Assembly (NCBI GenBank): GCA_016209225.1
Contig: JACQWO010000095.1
Coordinates: 1 to 35,536 of the forward strand
Origin: Desulfobacterales bacterium
GTDB lineage: Bacteria > Desulfobacterota > UBA8473
Length of the DNA stretch: 35,536 bases
Reading direction: 5' to 3'
Below are positions 28,857 to 34,105 of the stretch, piece by piece (position 1 is the stretch's first letter; each line of letters begins with the position of its first letter). Made by a program: the position numbers and the translations under genes. The notes under the pieces were generated by a model, which worked only from the letters and a program-made list of their open reading frames with translations, was not told the origin of the DNA and made no database searches.

Positions 28857-29855
28857 ATGAAAGAAATATGTCCAATTTGTGATAAAAAATCACGGGCAAA
28901 GCTAATAAAGAAAAAAGAAGCAATGAATGTTCGGGGTGAGCGCATTAATGTAGAGTATGAAGTTTTTAAATGTTATGCATGTGGTGAAGAGTACATAGAT
29001 ACCGAAACTGAGTATGAGCCATTTGTGTATGCTTACGCCATTTATCGAAAAAAGCACAATATGTTGCACCCCCAGGAGATTAAGGAAATTAGAAGAAAGT
29101 ATGGGCTTACGCAAAGCGAACTCGGCGGTCTTCTTGGATGGGGCGGAGCGACGTTAAGCAGATATGAAAATGGCGCGCTTCAAGACAAGGCCCACGATAA
29201 TCAACTGAAGCTTTTGAGAGAGCCTCGTAATATGCTCAAGATGATCACTGAAAATTTAGATGCCTTGAGGGAGCAACGGAGGAATCAATTACTGACAAAC
29301 ATTAAAAAGTTGGCGAAGGACGAGTATCCCATTAAGCGATTCTTAAAAGAATGGGGTACAGAACGTGAGATATCTGTGTATTCGGGCTACAAATCTTTTG
29401 ATCTGGATAAGCTGATTAACTGCATACTTTACTTCTGTAAAGACGGTTTGCTGAAAACTGTCATAAACAAATACCTTTTCTACGCCGATTTTCAGCACTT
29501 CAAAGAATACCAGACCAGCATAACCGGTGCCCGATATGTTCATCTGACTTATGGCCCTGTTCCTATGAACTATGACATTTATCTTGCTACTTTGGTCAAT
29601 GAGAGGGAAATCGACGTCAATGAAGTTTTTTATGAAGGCAAGGACTTTGTTGGTGAGGAATATAAAGCAATAGAAGCGCCCATTTTGACGCTTTTTTCCG
29701 ATAGTGAGCTGAAAATACTGGCTACTGTAAAAGAGCATTTCAAGGGATACTCGGCTAAAGCCATTAGTGATTTTTCGCATGAGGAGAAGGGATATCAAGA
29801 AACTACGAAAGGACAACCAATATCCTATGAATATGCTGAGACATTAAGAATGTAA
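28857..29855 (+). CDS. Zinc-finger/HTH/Panacea-domain antitoxin-like protein
   Basis: 332 residues in three parts. An MqsA-type zinc finger (Cys5, Cys8, Cys39, Cys42); an XRE-type helix-turn-helix (about 72-125, with RRKYGLTQSELGGLLGWG and SRYENG); and a C-terminal Panacea/SocA-like DUF4065 domain (about 175-325, with NKYLFYADFQHFK and YGPVPMNYD). Panacea domains are widespread antitoxin modules that neutralise diverse toxins. GAGAGG precedes the ATG. A toxin partner would be expected next to it, but downstream lies a transposase remnant and upstream an empty gap, so it appears orphaned. Confidence 0.85.
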   Translation: MKEICPICDKKSRAKLIKKKEAMNVRGERINVEYEVFKCYACGEEYIDTETEYEPFVYAYAIYRKKHNMLHPQEIKEIRRKYGLTQSELGGLLGWGGATLSRYENGALQDKAHDNQLKLLREPRNMLKMITENLDALREQRRNQLLTNIKKLAKDEYPIKRFLKEWGTEREISVYSGYKSFDLDKLINCILYFCKDGLLKTVINKYLFYADFQHFKEYQTSITGARYVHLTYGPVPMNYDIYLATLVNEREIDVNEVFYEGKDFVGEEYKAIEAPILTLFSDSELKILATVKEHFKGYSAKAISDFSHEEKGYQETTKGQPISYEYAETLRM

Positions 29856-29864
29856 ACTTAGTGC

Positions 29865-29980
29865 TTATCCGTAAATAATATAACCATCGTTAATTTTTCT
29901 CCAGCATATGATGGAAAAGGCGAGATGGATTAATGCTTCGTAACTGTTGGCTTTCTTTTCATATCGTCTTGAGAGCGCAA
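29865..29980 (-). pseudogene. IS5-type transposase C-terminal remnant
   Basis: Reading the minus strand gives ALSRRYEKKANSYEALIHLA followed by FSIICWRKIND and a stop at 29865-29867. This is the characteristic C-terminal end of IS5-group DDE transposases. Only about 38 residues remain, with no catalytic core. The HEPN fragment on the other strand begins right at its edge, which suggests the insertion truncated that gene. Confidence 0.7.
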
Positions 29981-30297
29981 AGGAGAAACTCAAATCTGCC
30001 ATAGCACTTTTAAAAGATGGTGATTAAGGATTCTGTAATCAGGTCATATTATGCCATCTTTACCGCTGCAAGAGCGCTCCTTGCAACAAAAGGGCTGGAT
30101 AGTTCAAAATATTCTGGAGTAGTTGCCCTTTTTAATCAGCATTTTGTTAAAACTAAAATTGTATCTAAAGAGGCAAGCAAGTTAATAGGAAAGGCAAAAC
30201 TTTACAGGGAACAAGCTGATTATGGGGATTTCTTTGTTGTTTCCAGAGAAGAAGCAAAAACTCAAATCCAATCTGCAAAAAGATTTATTGCAGAGGT
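29976..30297 (+). pseudogene. HEPN-domain gene, truncated and frameshifted
   Basis: Upstream of 30017 the frame encodes AKEKLKSAIALLKDGD and then hits TAA; after a two-base loss the sequence continues in another frame as KDSVIRSYYAIFTAARALLA, DSSKYSGVVALFNQHFVKT and YGDFFVVSREEAKTQIQSAKRFI. Together this is a HEPN domain of the kind paired with small nucleotidyltransferases. The N-terminus is cut by the IS5-type remnant and the C-terminus runs directly into a caspase fragment. An open frame from ATG 30017 to 30460 could still make a 147-residue hybrid. Confidence 0.75.
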
Positions 30298-30645
30298 TGT
30301 CCTTGTCCTTGATTCCTGTTTTTCAGGTGCAGGAGGAAAGAGCGTTCTTGCAAAAGGGGCAATACCATTGGTTATGATGACAACAAGCACAGTTCTTCCT
30401 TCCAACATAGCCGTCCTTTCAGCAACGCAAGGCTCACAGATAAGCACATCATCTCCCTAAAAAGGGCACGGCGTATTCGCTATTTCCTCAAGGCATTGAA
30501 ATAAGGCAAAAAGACCATTACAGAGATTTATGATTATATAAAGCCACTGGTAGAAGATGAGGCAAAGGCAATCAATGTCCAGCAAAGTCCGAGCATAAAC
30601 CCTGAACCAGAAAAGTTGAAGGGAAGGTTTGGGTTGAGGAAATGA
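30288..30645 (+). pseudogene. Caspase-like (peptidase C14) gene fragment, copy A
   Basis: The sequence encodes VLVLDSCFSGAGGKSVLAKG and IAVLSATQGSQISTSSP, then TAA, a frameshift and a second stop, and finally EIYDYIKPLVEDEAKAINVQ and KGRFGLRK. It matches the last part of the intact caspase gene at 32134-33591, including the catalytic Cys, but lacks everything before it. By eye about 36 of 146 bases differ in the body, but only 4 of 75 in the tail, so it is an older paralogue with a well-preserved 3' end. The join to the HEPN sequence is at TTGCAGAGGT, shared in similar form by the intact caspase gene. Confidence 0.8.
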
Positions 30646-30648
30646 ATT
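30591..30648 (+). repeat. 58-bp caspase-tail direct repeat, copy A
   Basis: Begins GAGCATAAAC and ends TTGAGGAAATGAATT. It is identical to 31398-31455 except for one base, and similar (about 7 differences) to the end of the intact caspase gene near 33538-33595. Together with copy B it flanks the RHH-PIN gene pair. Confidence 0.85.
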
Positions 30649-30741
30649 GCAGCAACCCATATATATTCTTGACATAAACAAGTGTTGCTGCAATAATAGA
30701 ATCATAATGAATCACTTTTAGGGTCAAGGGGGGTGATGCAC

Positions 30742-31014
30742 GTGAAACAGATTACGCTGAGGAGTATACCTGATGAGATTGAAGTGATGGTTAAAAAGGA
30801 AGCAAAAGCAAAAGGTTTAAGTCTTAATAAGGCTTTCATTGCCCTACTGGAAAAGGCAACAGGTGTAAAAACAAAGGACAGAAAGAAGAAAGCGCTGTAT
30901 CATGATCTGGACAATCTGTCTGGTGTATGGTCGAAAAATGAGGCTGCGGCATTCGATAACAACCTTCAGTTACAGCGAAAAGTGGATGAGGAATTATGGA
31001 AAAAAACAAGATAA
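30742..31014 (+). CDS. FitA-like ribbon-helix-helix antitoxin
   Basis: 90 residues. MKQITLRSIPDEIEVMVKKE and KGLSLNKAFIALLEKATG form the ribbon-helix-helix typical of FitA/VapB antitoxins; the C-terminal half (HDLDNLSGVWSKNEAAAFDN) is the toxin-binding tail. I chose GTG at 30742 because AAGGGGGG lies eight bases upstream; GTG 30733 and ATG 30736 are in frame but too close to that site. The gene overlaps the PIN toxin by 19 nt. Confidence 0.82.
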   Translation: MKQITLRSIPDEIEVMVKKEAKAKGLSLNKAFIALLEKATGVKTKDRKKKALYHDLDNLSGVWSKNEAAAFDNNLQLQRKVDEELWKKTR

Positions 31015-31412
31015 TACTGGATACATCTGCTTATTCTTCCTACCTGACAGGAAACTCTGAGATTAAGTTATCAATTCAGCAGGCTGACGAGATATTTCTA
31101 AATCCTGTGATACTTGGTGAACTATTAGCCGGCTTCATAATGGGGAAAAGCCAAAAGAAAAACAGGGCGATTCTTGAGGAATTTCTTTCCTCTCCAAGGG
31201 TTAAGGTTGTGGCTATTGATGAAGAGACATCAGAAAGATATGCTGTGATTGTTAATCATCTCAGGAAAGAAGGCACCCCGATACCTACCAATGATTTATG
31301 GATTTCTGCTTCTGCCATGCAACATGGGTTAAAAGTTGTAACTACCGACAGCCACTACCTGAAGGTATCCCAGATAATAACCGAGTATTATCAGGCGGAG
31401 CATAAATCCTGA
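30996..31412 (+). CDS. PIN-domain toxin (FitB/VapC-like)
   Basis: 138-residue PIN RNase toxin. All acidic positions are kept: Asp9 in IILDTSAYS, Glu in NPVILGELLAGF, Asp in TNDLWISASA and Asp in VVTTDSHYLK. It would cleave RNA when freed from its antitoxin. Its last codons (EHKS and the TGA) come from the second 58-bp caspase-tail repeat, in a different frame from the caspase, so the gene end was set by that junction. Together with the antitoxin it forms a unit bounded by the two repeats. Confidence 0.86.
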   Translation: MEKNKIILDTSAYSSYLTGNSEIKLSIQQADEIFLNPVILGELLAGFIMGKSQKKNRAILEEFLSSPRVKVVAIDEETSERYAVIVNHLRKEGTPIPTNDLWISASAMQHGLKVVTTDSHYLKVSQIITEYYQAEHKS

Positions 31413-31455
31413 ACCAGAAAAGTTGAAGGGAAGGTTTGGGTTGAGGAAATGAATT
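31398..31455 (+). repeat. 58-bp caspase-tail direct repeat, copy B
   Basis: Copy B of the repeat described at 30591-30648, 807 bp downstream of copy A. No other caspase sequence precedes it; it abuts the PIN toxin directly and its final ATG opens the nucleotidyltransferase frame. Confidence 0.85.
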
Positions 31456-31950
31456 CCATGCTTGATTATTTTTCCGTATTTAAGAAGTTAAATGAAAAAG
31501 GGATTAGATATATTGTTGTCGGTGGCATAGCAGTCAATCTTTATGGTATCCCCAAGATGACATACGATATAGACCTTATACTTGACCTTGAAGACAAAAA
31601 CTTAGAAAAATTTCTAAAATTGTTGAAAGGATGGGGGTTCAAACCAAAGGTGCCTGTGGACATCATGGAATTTGCAGAAAAGGATAAGAGGAAAGACTGG
31701 ATAAAAAACAAGAATATGAAGGCATTTAATCGTAAACCCGGAATGGGCTATTTCAGAGATAGACATTGTGATTGATTCACCTGTAGATTATGATAAGGCA
31801 CATAAAAGAATCAATGAGATTAAACTTCATGGTGTTACAATCCCTGTAGTCTCGATTGACGATCTCATAAAGATGAAGGAAAGGACAGGGAGACAGCAGG
31901 ATAAGGCAGATATAAGATATTTAAAGGAATTGAAGGATGAGAAAAAGTAA
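31449..31950 (+). pseudogene. DUF6036/AbiEii-like nucleotidyltransferase, frameshifted
   Basis: The first frame encodes YFSVFKKLNEKGIRYIVVGG, IAVNLYGIPKMTYDIDLILD and FLKLLKGWGFKPKVP, the nucleotidyltransferase core with GG and the D-x-D of YDIDLIL. Near 31733-31740 one extra base (or two missing) shifts the frame; the sequence then continues as NPEWAISEIDIVIDSPVDYD and IPVVSIDDLIKMKERTGRQQ to a stop at 31950. The rest of the family length is present, so the damage is recent or a sequencing error. ATG 31449 lies in the repeat; ATG 31458 is better spaced from GAGG. Confidence 0.78.
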
Positions 31951-32133: not shown

Positions 32134-33591
32134 ATGAAAGGGATATTTGCAGTAATTTTAATCTTTGCATTAGCAGGCTCGATGGCAGGGTGTGCGACAC
32201 CGTTGACGAATGCGGTAAGTAGGGGCGACGTCCAGCAGGTTAAAACCCTGCTTGATAGCGGAGCTCAGATTGATGAGCAAGGTGGTGACCCTTCTCGAAC
32301 ACCGTTAGCATGGGCAATAACATATAGGCATTTTGATATAGTAAAACTCTTGATTGAGAGGGGTGCAGACCTTAATTATAGGGGGATGGGATCACCTCTA
32401 TCTTGGGCCATAAAGGTTGGTGATATTAATTTGGTGAATTTTTTGATCGAGAAAGGCGCGAATGTAAATCAAATTCAATGGGATTTAAGTACACCTTTAA
32501 TGGAGGCAGCGCAAAAGAGAAACACTAATATTGTAGACCTTCTGCTGGAAAGGGGTGCTGATCTGGAATATGCAATAAATGCATGTGCCGTAAACAAAGC
32601 GCATTGGGTGTGGGGTGCTGAGCCTTGCCTTGCAACATTAAAACCAATCAAGGCTAAACAGGATAAAATCGCGCAACAGAAAGAAAAAGAGCAGGAGATA
32701 GCTAGGGCAAAAGAGATAGAAATGTTGAAGGCGAAAGAGATGAAGGACTTACTCAAAGAAGTTGTTAAGGAATCATCTATGCAAAAAACCGATTCTAAAG
32801 CCGTTCCTTCCATTCAGTCCGACATAGACAAACCCTCCTTCAGTCCGTCGGAGAGGATAATGAGAGATAACGATCTTGCAGTCATCATCGGCATAGAAGG
32901 CTACCAGAGCCTTCCAAAATCCGATTATTCGTATGACGATGCAAAACTTGTGGGTGATTATGTAAAGGCATTGGGCTTTAAGCCGAGAAATATAGAACTT
33001 CTCTTGGATGAACGTGCGACTAAGTCAGCCATTGAAAAGATTATAAAAACATGGCTTCCAAACAAGGCGAAGCCTGAAAGCAGGGTATTTGTGTATTATT
33101 CAGGGCATGGAGCACCAGAGCCAAAAACAGGAGATGCTTATATTGTGCCGTTTGATGGAGACCCAAACTACCTCTCTGATACAGGTTATCCGCTTAAAAG
33201 TCTTTATGACACTCTGGCTAAACTTCAGGTTGCAGAAGTAACAGTTATTCTTGACTCATGCTTTTCAGGTGCAGGAGGAAGGAGCGTTCTTGCAAAAGGG
33301 GCAAGGCCTTTGGTGATGATGACAGAGGGTTTCGTTTTACCGCAGAATATTGCAGTTCTATCTGCAACACTAGGAACACAGATTTCTACATCATCTCCAG
33401 AAAAAGGGCATGGCGTATTCACATACTATTTTCTCAAGGCGTTGAAGGACGGCAAAAAGACAATTACGGAGATTTATGAATACATAAAGCCACTGGTAGA
33501 AGACGAGGCAAAGGCAATCAATGTCCAGCAAAGCCCAAGCATAAATCCTGAACCAGAAAAGATAAAAGGAAGGTTTGGGTTGAGGAAGTGA
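32134..33591 (+). CDS. Ankyrin-repeat caspase-like (C14) lipoprotein
   Basis: 485 residues. A lipoprotein signal peptide with lipobox MAGC (Cys20, followed by Ala, so outer-membrane sorting is likely); three to four ankyrin repeats (about 21-150, with TPLAWAITYRHFDIVKLLIE and TPLMEAAQKRNTNIVDLLLE); a Lys/Glu-rich coiled linker (about 175-215); and a caspase-fold peptidase C14 domain (about 245-420) with catalytic His325 in YYSGHGAPE and Cys376 in LDSCFSGAGG. The domain is complete. AGGAGGCGGAGG precedes the ATG. It is predicted to act in the periplasm; the ankyrin part may bind a partner. Activation signal and substrate are unknown. Confidence 0.9.
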   Translation: MKGIFAVILIFALAGSMAGCATPLTNAVSRGDVQQVKTLLDSGAQIDEQGGDPSRTPLAWAITYRHFDIVKLLIERGADLNYRGMGSPLSWAIKVGDINLVNFLIEKGANVNQIQWDLSTPLMEAAQKRNTNIVDLLLERGADLEYAINACAVNKAHWVWGAEPCLATLKPIKAKQDKIAQQKEKEQEIARAKEIEMLKAKEMKDLLKEVVKESSMQKTDSKAVPSIQSDIDKPSFSPSERIMRDNDLAVIIGIEGYQSLPKSDYSYDDAKLVGDYVKALGFKPRNIELLLDERATKSAIEKIIKTWLPNKAKPESRVFVYYSGHGAPEPKTGDAYIVPFDGDPNYLSDTGYPLKSLYDTLAKLQVAEVTVILDSCFSGAGGRSVLAKGARPLVMMTEGFVLPQNIAVLSATLGTQISTSSPEKGHGVFTYYFLKALKDGKKTITEIYEYIKPLVEDEAKAINVQQSPSINPEPEKIKGRFGLRK

Positions 33592-33764
33592 AGATATACT
33601 TTAGTAGGCATGCAAGAAGGCAGATGAAGTGGAGGGAGGTTGCTGAAGATGAAAAGGTTATTGGTATTGAGATTATAGGGGCAACAGAGCGATATAAACT
33701 GGAAGACATCTTCAACCTTTCTACTGAAAATCTGATATTAGAAGAAACAGCGCAAAAGCGCTGA
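33588..33764 (+). pseudogene. DUF4258-DUF2283 hybrid remnant
   Basis: 58 residues from GTG overlapping the caspase stop. The first 20, KIYFSRHARRQMKWREVAED, are the start of a DUF4258 toxin-like protein (F-S-x-H-A-x-x-R-M-K). The rest, KVIGIEIIGATERYKLEDIF then NLSTENLILEE, is the end of a DUF2283 antitoxin-like protein. These two families are often neighbours, so an in-frame deletion seems to have fused the head of one to the tail of the other. The product would have neither domain whole. Confidence 0.65.
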
Positions 33765-34105
33765 AGATAATTGAAAAATAATATGGAGACCTGTCCTTTC
33801 TGGAAATGGGAAAATTACCTTGACTTAAAATTCATGGGAGGTAGGCTCATTGATACAGGCTGTTTTGTGATAAAATAGCTACAGAAACTTAGGGTTCTTA
33901 GAGAAGGAAATCGCTGAAGATATGGAAAATGTCTTTGCTGAAATGAGGCAAAAGGAGGGTTGGATATCGGTTCCAGCCCTGTAACAGCTACAAAAAGGCA
34001 TCGCATAATCATCAGCATTGGATATGAGATTGTTCCAGTGGTGATGGCCAATCGTTTTAGGTGGAGAGTTGTATTGAGAATAGATATGGCAAAGGAGAAG
34101 ATAGC
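33765..34105. other. 341-bp gap without a recognised gene
   Basis: All three plus-strand frames are broken. Fragments such as KEIAEDMENVFAEMRQKEGW and RFRWRVVLRIDMAKEKIA look protein-like but I recognise no family. It may be decayed sequence from a lost module. Confidence 0.4.

What the first reader, a model, noticed from the sequence alone, without database searches (positions are those of the whole stretch)
29976..30645. HEPN gene fused to a caspase fragment at a short shared sequence
The reading frame passes from HEPN (QSAKRFI) straight into the caspase active-site strand (VLVLDSCFSG). At the join both parents share TTGCAGARGT (30288-30297 versus TTGCAGAAGT before the same point in the intact caspase). 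This looks like microhomology-mediated fusion. The 147-residue open frame (30017-30460) would carry the catalytic Cys but no His, so a decoy or dead product is possible.
Basis: partly seen in the sequence, partly recalled or inferred. Interest (0 to 1): 0.55.

Follow-up and report, generated by a model that had tools for sequence, protein, structure and literature searches.

The report
Dead HEPN–caspase fusion scar
Two unrelated cell-death-type genes were joined, probably by an accidental deletion between short matching sequences, and then decayed, leaving a broken gene scar in a bacterial gene cluster where such deletions have happened before.

Summary
From 29957 to 30646 the window holds a 5'-truncated HEPN gene joined in frame, at TTGCAGAGGT (30288-30297), to the 3' part of a caspase gene. 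The 147-aa frame 30017-30460 carries the caspase Cys and no His.
The product is very likely dead. HEPN has lost its native start, has a 2-nt frameshift, and its conserved His is Tyr (His in 49 of 51 relatives). The caspase part has two stops and a 4-nt deletion. No genome but its own showed the fusion in sets of 198 and 395 (overlapping), nor did 43 HEPN relatives readable to their end.
How it was joined is probable, not proven. One of four HEPN relatives tested shares 7-8 nt with four of five caspases at the join; the others do not. The strongest support lies next door: at 33644-33654 a DUF4258-DUF2283 fusion is an exact 281-bp deletion between two TGAAGATGAAA copies that both survive elsewhere in the same genome. 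Two size differences at 7-8 nt repeats occur in sister genomes at this locus.
Best reading: a short-direct-repeat deletion pseudogene in a decaying array of toxin-antitoxin modules and caspases. The mechanism is known; nothing found supports a decoy.

The parts
28857..29855 (+). MqsA-like/HTH/Panacea (SocA-like) antitoxin-type ORF, ending at the IS end
   Evidence: Pfam PF13274 1.1e-20, PF15731 2.9e-12; L094 and L095 have no room for it between MFS and TA
29856..29966 (-). remnant of an IS5-family transposase C-terminus with one IS end
   Evidence: translation RRYEKKANSYEALIHLAFSIICWRK..., 64-67% aa to copies in L026/L029; 78% DNA to G285; IS5-family transposases among plasmid hits at 50-60%, weak E-values of 0.02 to 6
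29957..29966 (+). possible short homology TTTCATATCG at the IS/HEPN join
   Evidence: HEPN relatives L042 and L046 carry TTTCATATCG; IS relative L029 carries CTTTTCATA, but the closer IS relative L111 does not
29957..30297 (+). HEPN toxin remnant, native start missing
   Evidence: alignment with 11 relatives; Pfam PF05168
30024..30025 (+). 2-nt deletion (frameshift) in HEPN, about here, relative to relatives
   Evidence: alignment; sequence
30017..30460 (+). 147-aa chimeric open frame HEPN-caspase
30288..30297 (+). shared sequence TTGCAGAGGT at the HEPN/caspase join
30288..30646 (+). 3' part of a caspase gene (Cys loop to original stop), pseudogene
30458..30460 (+). in-frame nonsense codon TAA where the ten compared copies have GAA
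30478..30479 (+). 4-nt deletion between these bases (frameshift)
30502..30504 (+). second nonsense codon TAA where the compared copies have GAC or GAT
30586..30651 (+). caspase 3' tail copy 1
30733..31014 (+). ribbon-helix-helix antitoxin of the RHH/PIN module
   Evidence: weak Pfam FitA-like_RHH 5.6e-4, below the curated cut-off; same place in L094, L095, L098
30996..31412 (+). PIN toxin
   Evidence: Pfam PF01850 5.1e-15
31393..31458 (+). caspase 3' tail copy 2, where L094 has a whole caspase between PIN and NT and L095 a longer 3' remnant
31449..31775 (+). nucleotidyltransferase (DUF2204/AbiEii-like) ORF, 108 aa against 164 aa in L095
32134..33591 (+). intact ankyrin-caspase gene with lipoprotein-type signal
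   Evidence: Pfam Peptidase_C14 2.1e-19 and Ank; lipobox-like SMAGC read by eye
33592..33765 (+). second fusion scar: DUF4258 5' part joined to DUF2283 3' part
   Evidence: both genes whole in own-genome contig C23 (L099 1501-1955)
33644..33654 (+). TGAAGATGAAA, single copy left by a 281-bp short-repeat deletion
   Evidence: two copies in L099; the only repeated 11-mer of the 511-base stretch examined

Best explanation
The sequence is a pseudogene scar. An MNT-HEPN type toxin gene once stood upstream of a caspase gene in an array of toxin-antitoxin modules and caspases (inferred). A deletion between a short sequence in the last codons of HEPN (IAEV) and a similar one just before the caspase Cys strand (VAEV) removed the end of HEPN and the front of the caspase, with its His (join shown, deletion inferred). 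The shared sequence encodes the same residues in the same phase in both genes, so the join is in frame. Another truncation, against an IS5-type remnant, removed the HEPN start. Stops, frameshifts and loss of the conserved HEPN His then accumulated (shown). No function is expected.
For: Breakpoint bracketed by other genomes on each side. HEPN L043 and four of five caspases share 7-8 nt at the join. Caspase part: two stops and a 4-nt deletion. HEPN: native start lost and 2-nt frameshift; H32Y where 49 of 51 relatives have H. No fusion in any genome but its own among 198 and 395 (overlapping set); of 52 HEPN loci, 43 could be read to their end and none runs more than 27 residues past residue 92; no viral-contig match to a pattern over the join; none of 15 plasmid records covers 80% of the chimera; no phage match. 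Same process nearby: 281-bp deletion at an 11-nt repeat with both copies kept in contig C23 of the same genome; differences of 1644 bp at 8 nt and 156 bp at 7 nt in sister genomes. Null of that scan: at least 7 nt in 0.36%, at least 8 in 0.11%, at least 11 in 0 of 60,000.
Against: No genome was found with this HEPN directly followed by a caspase, so deletion in cis is inferred. Three of four HEPN relatives do not share the 7-nt string with any caspase tested. Of 15 junction rows between copies, 8 have repeats of only 2-5 nt, which chance explains, and the PIN/tail join at 31393 shows only 1-3 nt by eye. Codon-position counts do not separate the fragment from live copies: its 5 unique changes fall 2, 3, 0, but the open copy L095b shows 0, 3, 0. 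HEPN keeps 25 of 26 conserved positions, so decay is recent or partial. Caspase homologs without an intact dyad are common (PMC3501461 passages: 84% intact overall, 57% in Nitrospirae), so a missing His alone proves nothing. No reads were available to rule out a contig error.
Confidence: 0.66

Rival explanations
1. The join is an ectopic recombination or template switch between DNA from two places (for example imported with the IS and the MqsA-like gene) rather than a deletion between neighbours. The product is equally dead.
For: The MqsA-IS-HEPN-caspase block is an addition between the MFS gene and the RHH/PIN module relative to L094 and L095; the caspase fragment looks mosaic by eye, its middle like L096 copies and its end like W/L094/L098; HEPN has no other DNA match in this genome.
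Against: A deletion needs fewer steps, and deletions are what the nearby junction with a known parent shows.
Confidence: 0.22
2. Assembly chimera in a draft genome.
For: The genome is in 95 contigs, IS/TA/caspase repeats favour misassembly, and there are no reads to check.
Against: Apart from a 61-nt tail match at 97% well away from the join, neither side has a near-identical copy in the assembly (best other caspase 82%, no other HEPN match); the caspase side carries its own decay, which a misjoin would not create.
Confidence: 0.06
3. The 147-aa chimera is expressed and acts as a decoy or inhibitor: the HEPN half binds a nucleotidyltransferase partner or the caspase half titrates caspase regulators.
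For: The frame is open across the join for 147 codons; 25 of 26 conserved HEPN positions are kept; the Cys strand is intact.
Against: No forward promoter-like site upstream of 30017; the two found on + start at 30669 and 30675. No native start, no evident ribosome-binding sequence, N-terminal part missing, conserved His lost, found in no other genome. The intact neighbour has a lipoprotein-type signal; this product has none.
Confidence: 0.04
4. An established HEPN-caspase domain architecture of which this is a degraded member.
For: Both domains occur in conflict systems (recalled); in one other genome a HEPN match lies about 440 bp after a caspase match (L044, same contig as L102).
Against: None of the 43 HEPN relatives read to their end is fused; the ten plasmid hits listed of 15 are annotated HEPN and cover at most residues 3-101; phages none.
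Confidence: 0.01

Closest known systems
Deletions between short direct repeats in bacteria (RecA-independent recombination; PMC5426353, start of abstract and passages seen; it cites Albertini 1982 and Bi & Liu 1994, which I did not see)
   Same: Loss of the sequence between short repeats leaving one copy, with gene fusions as a by-product; shown exactly at 33644-33654
   Different: At the HEPN/caspase join the undeleted parent is not in hand
MNT-HEPN (type VII) toxin-antitoxin modules, PF05168 HEPN (PMC3710099, passages seen; PMC11586414, listing and start of abstract)
   Same: HEPN part belongs to PF05168; relative L042 has a nucleotidyltransferase gene then HEPN in tandem
   Different: Here the nucleotidyltransferase partner, the HEPN start and end and the conserved His are gone
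Bacterial caspase homologs (metacaspases), PF00656 (PMC3501461, passages seen)
   Same: 3' part is a C14 caspase with the Cys loop; that paper reports members with an N-terminal helix that may be a signal peptide
   Different: No His, two stops and a frameshift; the operon passages shown mention no toxin-antitoxin neighbours

Membership tests
Short-direct-repeat deletion product | one copy of a short repeat at the join | tested here: inconclusive
   TTGCAGAGGT 30288-30297; 7-8 nt of it shared by HEPN L043 with four of five caspases, not by L042, L044 or L046
Short-direct-repeat deletion product | undeleted parent with both repeat copies | tested here: inconclusive
   not found for HEPN/caspase; found for the neighbouring DUF4258/DUF2283 scar
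Functional MNT-HEPN toxin | complete HEPN domain with start | tested here: not met
   native start and N-terminal part missing from the frame, frameshift
Functional MNT-HEPN toxin | conserved His of this HEPN family (that it is the active-site His is inferred; passage says such proteins have a conserved H elsewhere) | tested here: not met
   Y at position 32; H in 49 of 51 relatives
Functional MNT-HEPN toxin | adjacent nucleotidyltransferase upstream | tested here: not met
   an IS5-type remnant lies upstream; relative L042 has the partner
Active C14 caspase | Cys and His dyad | tested here: not met
   Cys kept, His region not present
Conserved HEPN-caspase fusion family | same architecture in relatives | tested here: not met
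Expressed decoy protein | transcript or peptide | not testable with these tools
   no expression data

The most novel reading that the evidence does not exclude
In this genus lipoprotein-type caspases and toxin-antitoxin modules share one array, and the array is pruned by short-repeat deletions in a fixed direction. Caspases lose their front just behind a toxin-type gene, while the toxin-antitoxin modules and caspase 3' ends stay. The toxin-antitoxin modules would then act as stabilisers that decide which deletions survive, and HEPN-caspase is a case where the stabiliser itself was lost.
Probability: 0.12. Interest if true: 0.5.

Novelty: new member of a known kind. Interest (0 to 1): 0.25.

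Why it matters
The fusion is a clear example of how bacterial gene arrays decay into chimeric open frames that annotation could take for a new domain architecture. The useful part is the setting: toxin-antitoxin modules and bacterial caspases in one unstable island, with a parental and a deleted version of one gene pair in the same genome, where the dynamics could be followed.

Tried and rejected
Conserved fusion family: not found. Mobile copy on phage or plasmid: no phage match; 15 plasmid records, all under 60% identity, the ten listed being HEPN genes; no viral-contig match to a pattern across the join. Another HEPN or IS copy in the own genome: none by DNA. Microhomology at the IS/HEPN join: possible, up to TTTCATATCG, but the closer IS relative L111 (78%) does not share it, so not counted. 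Microhomology at the PIN/caspase-tail join: 1-3 nt by eye, not counted. Codon-position test of relaxed selection: numbers too small and one open copy looks the same, so not used as evidence.

A mixed HEPN and caspase protein alignment put the two families on top of each other and was not used.

One-sided loss of caspase fronts: five remnants with only the C-terminal part (window 30288 and 31393, two in L095, one in L096) against no N-terminal-only remnant in the seven sequences searched. The search for N-terminal pieces used only two N-terminal types; a copy at a contig edge (L096 88-663) was left out; a partial copy on G001 contig 141 and a copy with a stop on G003 contig 88 were not examined; and two of the five sit at the same place after PIN and may be one event. 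The asymmetry is only suggestive.

Literature: seven searches, each showing 8-15 of the papers that matched. None of the titles or abstract starts shown describes a HEPN-caspase fusion or a caspase/toxin-antitoxin array. Two papers on bacterial conflict systems that hold both words (PMC8195603, PMC7159879, listing) were not opened. The library is open-access only.

Full report
What is there. The window (G000 contig 89, a 3.1-Mb draft genome in 95 contigs) has an ORF at 30017-30460 whose residues 5-93 match Pfam HEPN (6.9e-16) and whose end is the Cys-bearing strand of a caspase (30275-30484, 76% aa identity to the intact neighbour at 32134-33591). The caspase part continues, out of frame, to its original stop near 30645 (93% aa identity for 30478-30642). 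DNA repeats D1, D2 and D4 show the same. HEPN-like DNA extends upstream to about 29957, where it abuts the C-terminal end of an IS5-family transposase on the minus strand.

Where the join is. With DNA of the region as query, HEPN matches in other genomes end at or before 30295 and caspase matches begin at or after 30288 (198 genomes; 395 genomes; the sets overlap). This brackets the shared TTGCAGAGGT at 30288-30297. In the closest HEPN relatives this is the IAE/IGE/ISE stretch near the C-terminus; in one group of caspases it is VAEV/VAEI just before the active-site strand, in the same reading phase, which explains the open frame. The exact shared run was measured for 20 pairs, 4 HEPN relatives by 5 caspases. 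L043 gives 7, 8, 8 and 7 nt with four caspases and 4 with the fifth. L046 gives 7 nt with two, but in a different string that the window does not hold, and 3-4 with the rest. L042 and L044 give 3-5. In 400,000 random joins of these genes a run of 7 or more occurs in 0.072%, without correction for taking the best pair. The homology is therefore likely but not certain, and its length is not known because the parents are not in hand.

The product is dead. HEPN: native start missing, 2-nt deletion at about 30024/30025, and Tyr at position 32 where 49 of 51 relatives have His; it keeps the other 25 of 26 conserved positions. Caspase: GAA to TAA at 30458, 4-nt deletion after 30478, GAC/GAT to TAA at 30502, against ten copies that are open over this stretch. 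The codon-position counts do not help: the fragment's changes at otherwise invariant columns fall 2, 3, 0, but an open copy (L095b) shows 0, 3, 0. No forward-strand promoter-like site lies upstream of 30017 in the 29700-30760 scan, and no ribosome-binding sequence is evident before 30017 by eye.

No family. Of 52 HEPN loci found in the species-representative genomes, 43 align to the end of the HEPN part, and their frames stop a median of 12 and at most 27 residues after residue 92; the other 9 are partial matches. Caspase sequence occurs in two of the 52 loci, L044 (same contig as L102) and, further off, L079; in neither does the HEPN frame run on. The chimera as a protein finds 15 plasmid records, none covering 80% of it and the ten listed annotated as HEPN, and nothing in phages; a pattern over the join finds nothing in viral contigs.

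The setting. In sister genomes L094 and L095 the order is MFS transporter, RHH/PIN toxin-antitoxin module, caspase (whole in L094, a remnant in L095), nucleotidyltransferase, then further caspase genes or remnants; L098 has MFS, a 582-aa gene, RHH/PIN (PIN internally deleted) and two caspases. The window has an added block (MqsA/Panacea gene, IS remnant, HEPN-caspase scar) before the RHH/PIN module and only a 66-bp caspase tail after it (31393-31458), where L094 has a whole caspase gene and L095 a longer remnant. PIN matches lie within 3 kb of caspase matches more often than expected in the five genomes of this genus: 8 against 0.78 expected, from 75 PIN and 29 caspase matches. Four of the eight are one orthologous place and two are pieces of one gene, so about four are independent; no other gene family was run as a control.

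The same process next door. At 33592-33765 the start of a DUF4258 gene is joined to the end of a DUF2283 gene. Contig 23 of the same genome has both genes complete after its own caspase. The two loci differ by 281 bp lying exactly between two copies of TGAAGATGAAA. That is the only repeated 11-mer in the 511-base stretch examined, and the window keeps one copy. A systematic comparison of ten sequences gave 15 rows of junctions. Counted once each, the short-repeat cases are 11 nt (this one), 8 nt (1644 bp, missing in L094 and L095, present in L098) and 7 nt (156 bp inside the PIN gene of L098). A 9-nt row joins two caspase tails and may be ordinary homologous recombination. The remaining eight rows have 2-5 nt, as chance gives. 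By chance the same statistic reaches 5 in 4.9%, 7 in 0.36%, 8 in 0.11%, 9 in 0.04% and 11 in none of 60,000 trials. For the 8-nt case, insertion in L098 instead of deletion in the others cannot be excluded.

Judgement. Shown: the join, its position, the lesions, its absence in the relatives searched, and one exact short-repeat deletion in this island with two more likely. Inferred: that HEPN and caspase were neighbours and were joined by such a deletion. Deletions between short direct repeats are a known RecA-independent process in E. coli (PMC5426353, passages seen). A HEPN-caspase chimera of this kind is therefore a product of decay, not a new architecture. The wider pattern, toxin-antitoxin modules and caspases in one unstable array with caspase fronts lost behind toxin-type genes, is more interesting but only suggestive here.

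Noticed in passing
33592-33765; L099 1501-1955: DUF4258-DUF2283 fusion scar: exact 281-bp deletion between two 11-nt repeats, with the undeleted version in contig 23 of the same genome.
   Followed up: yes
31393-31458: Caspase 3' tail, 66 bp, between the PIN and nucleotidyltransferase genes, 94% identical to the tail at 30586-30651; L094 has a whole caspase gene at this place, L095 a longer 3' remnant.
   Followed up: partly
window 30288-30646 and 31393-31458; L095 3235-3711 and 4432-4674; L096 1153-1365: Five caspase remnants keep only the 3' end, each after a toxin-type gene or the 59-aa ORF that follows the nucleotidyltransferase; no N-terminal-only remnant was seen with two N-terminal queries.
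   Followed up: partly
L098 6047-7795 versus L094/L095: A 582-aa gene (family not searched) between the MFS gene and the RHH/PIN module is missing in L094 and L095 at an 8-nt repeat AGGATATT, leaving a short joined stretch.
   Followed up: partly
L098 8150-8215: PIN toxin gene with a 156-bp (52-codon) internal deletion at a 7-nt repeat.
   Followed up: partly
31449-31775: Nucleotidyltransferase ORF ends early, apparently by a frameshift near 31730, compared with the 164-aa ORF of L095.
   Followed up: no
L096 4766-5650, L098 11590-12444, L099 1952-2782, L101 11570-12385, L102 1880-2698: A secreted-looking protein gene (DUF4384 in L096) with a similar VW(V/I)E...GE start by eye recurs near caspases in these arrays; a possible partner of the caspases.
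   Followed up: no
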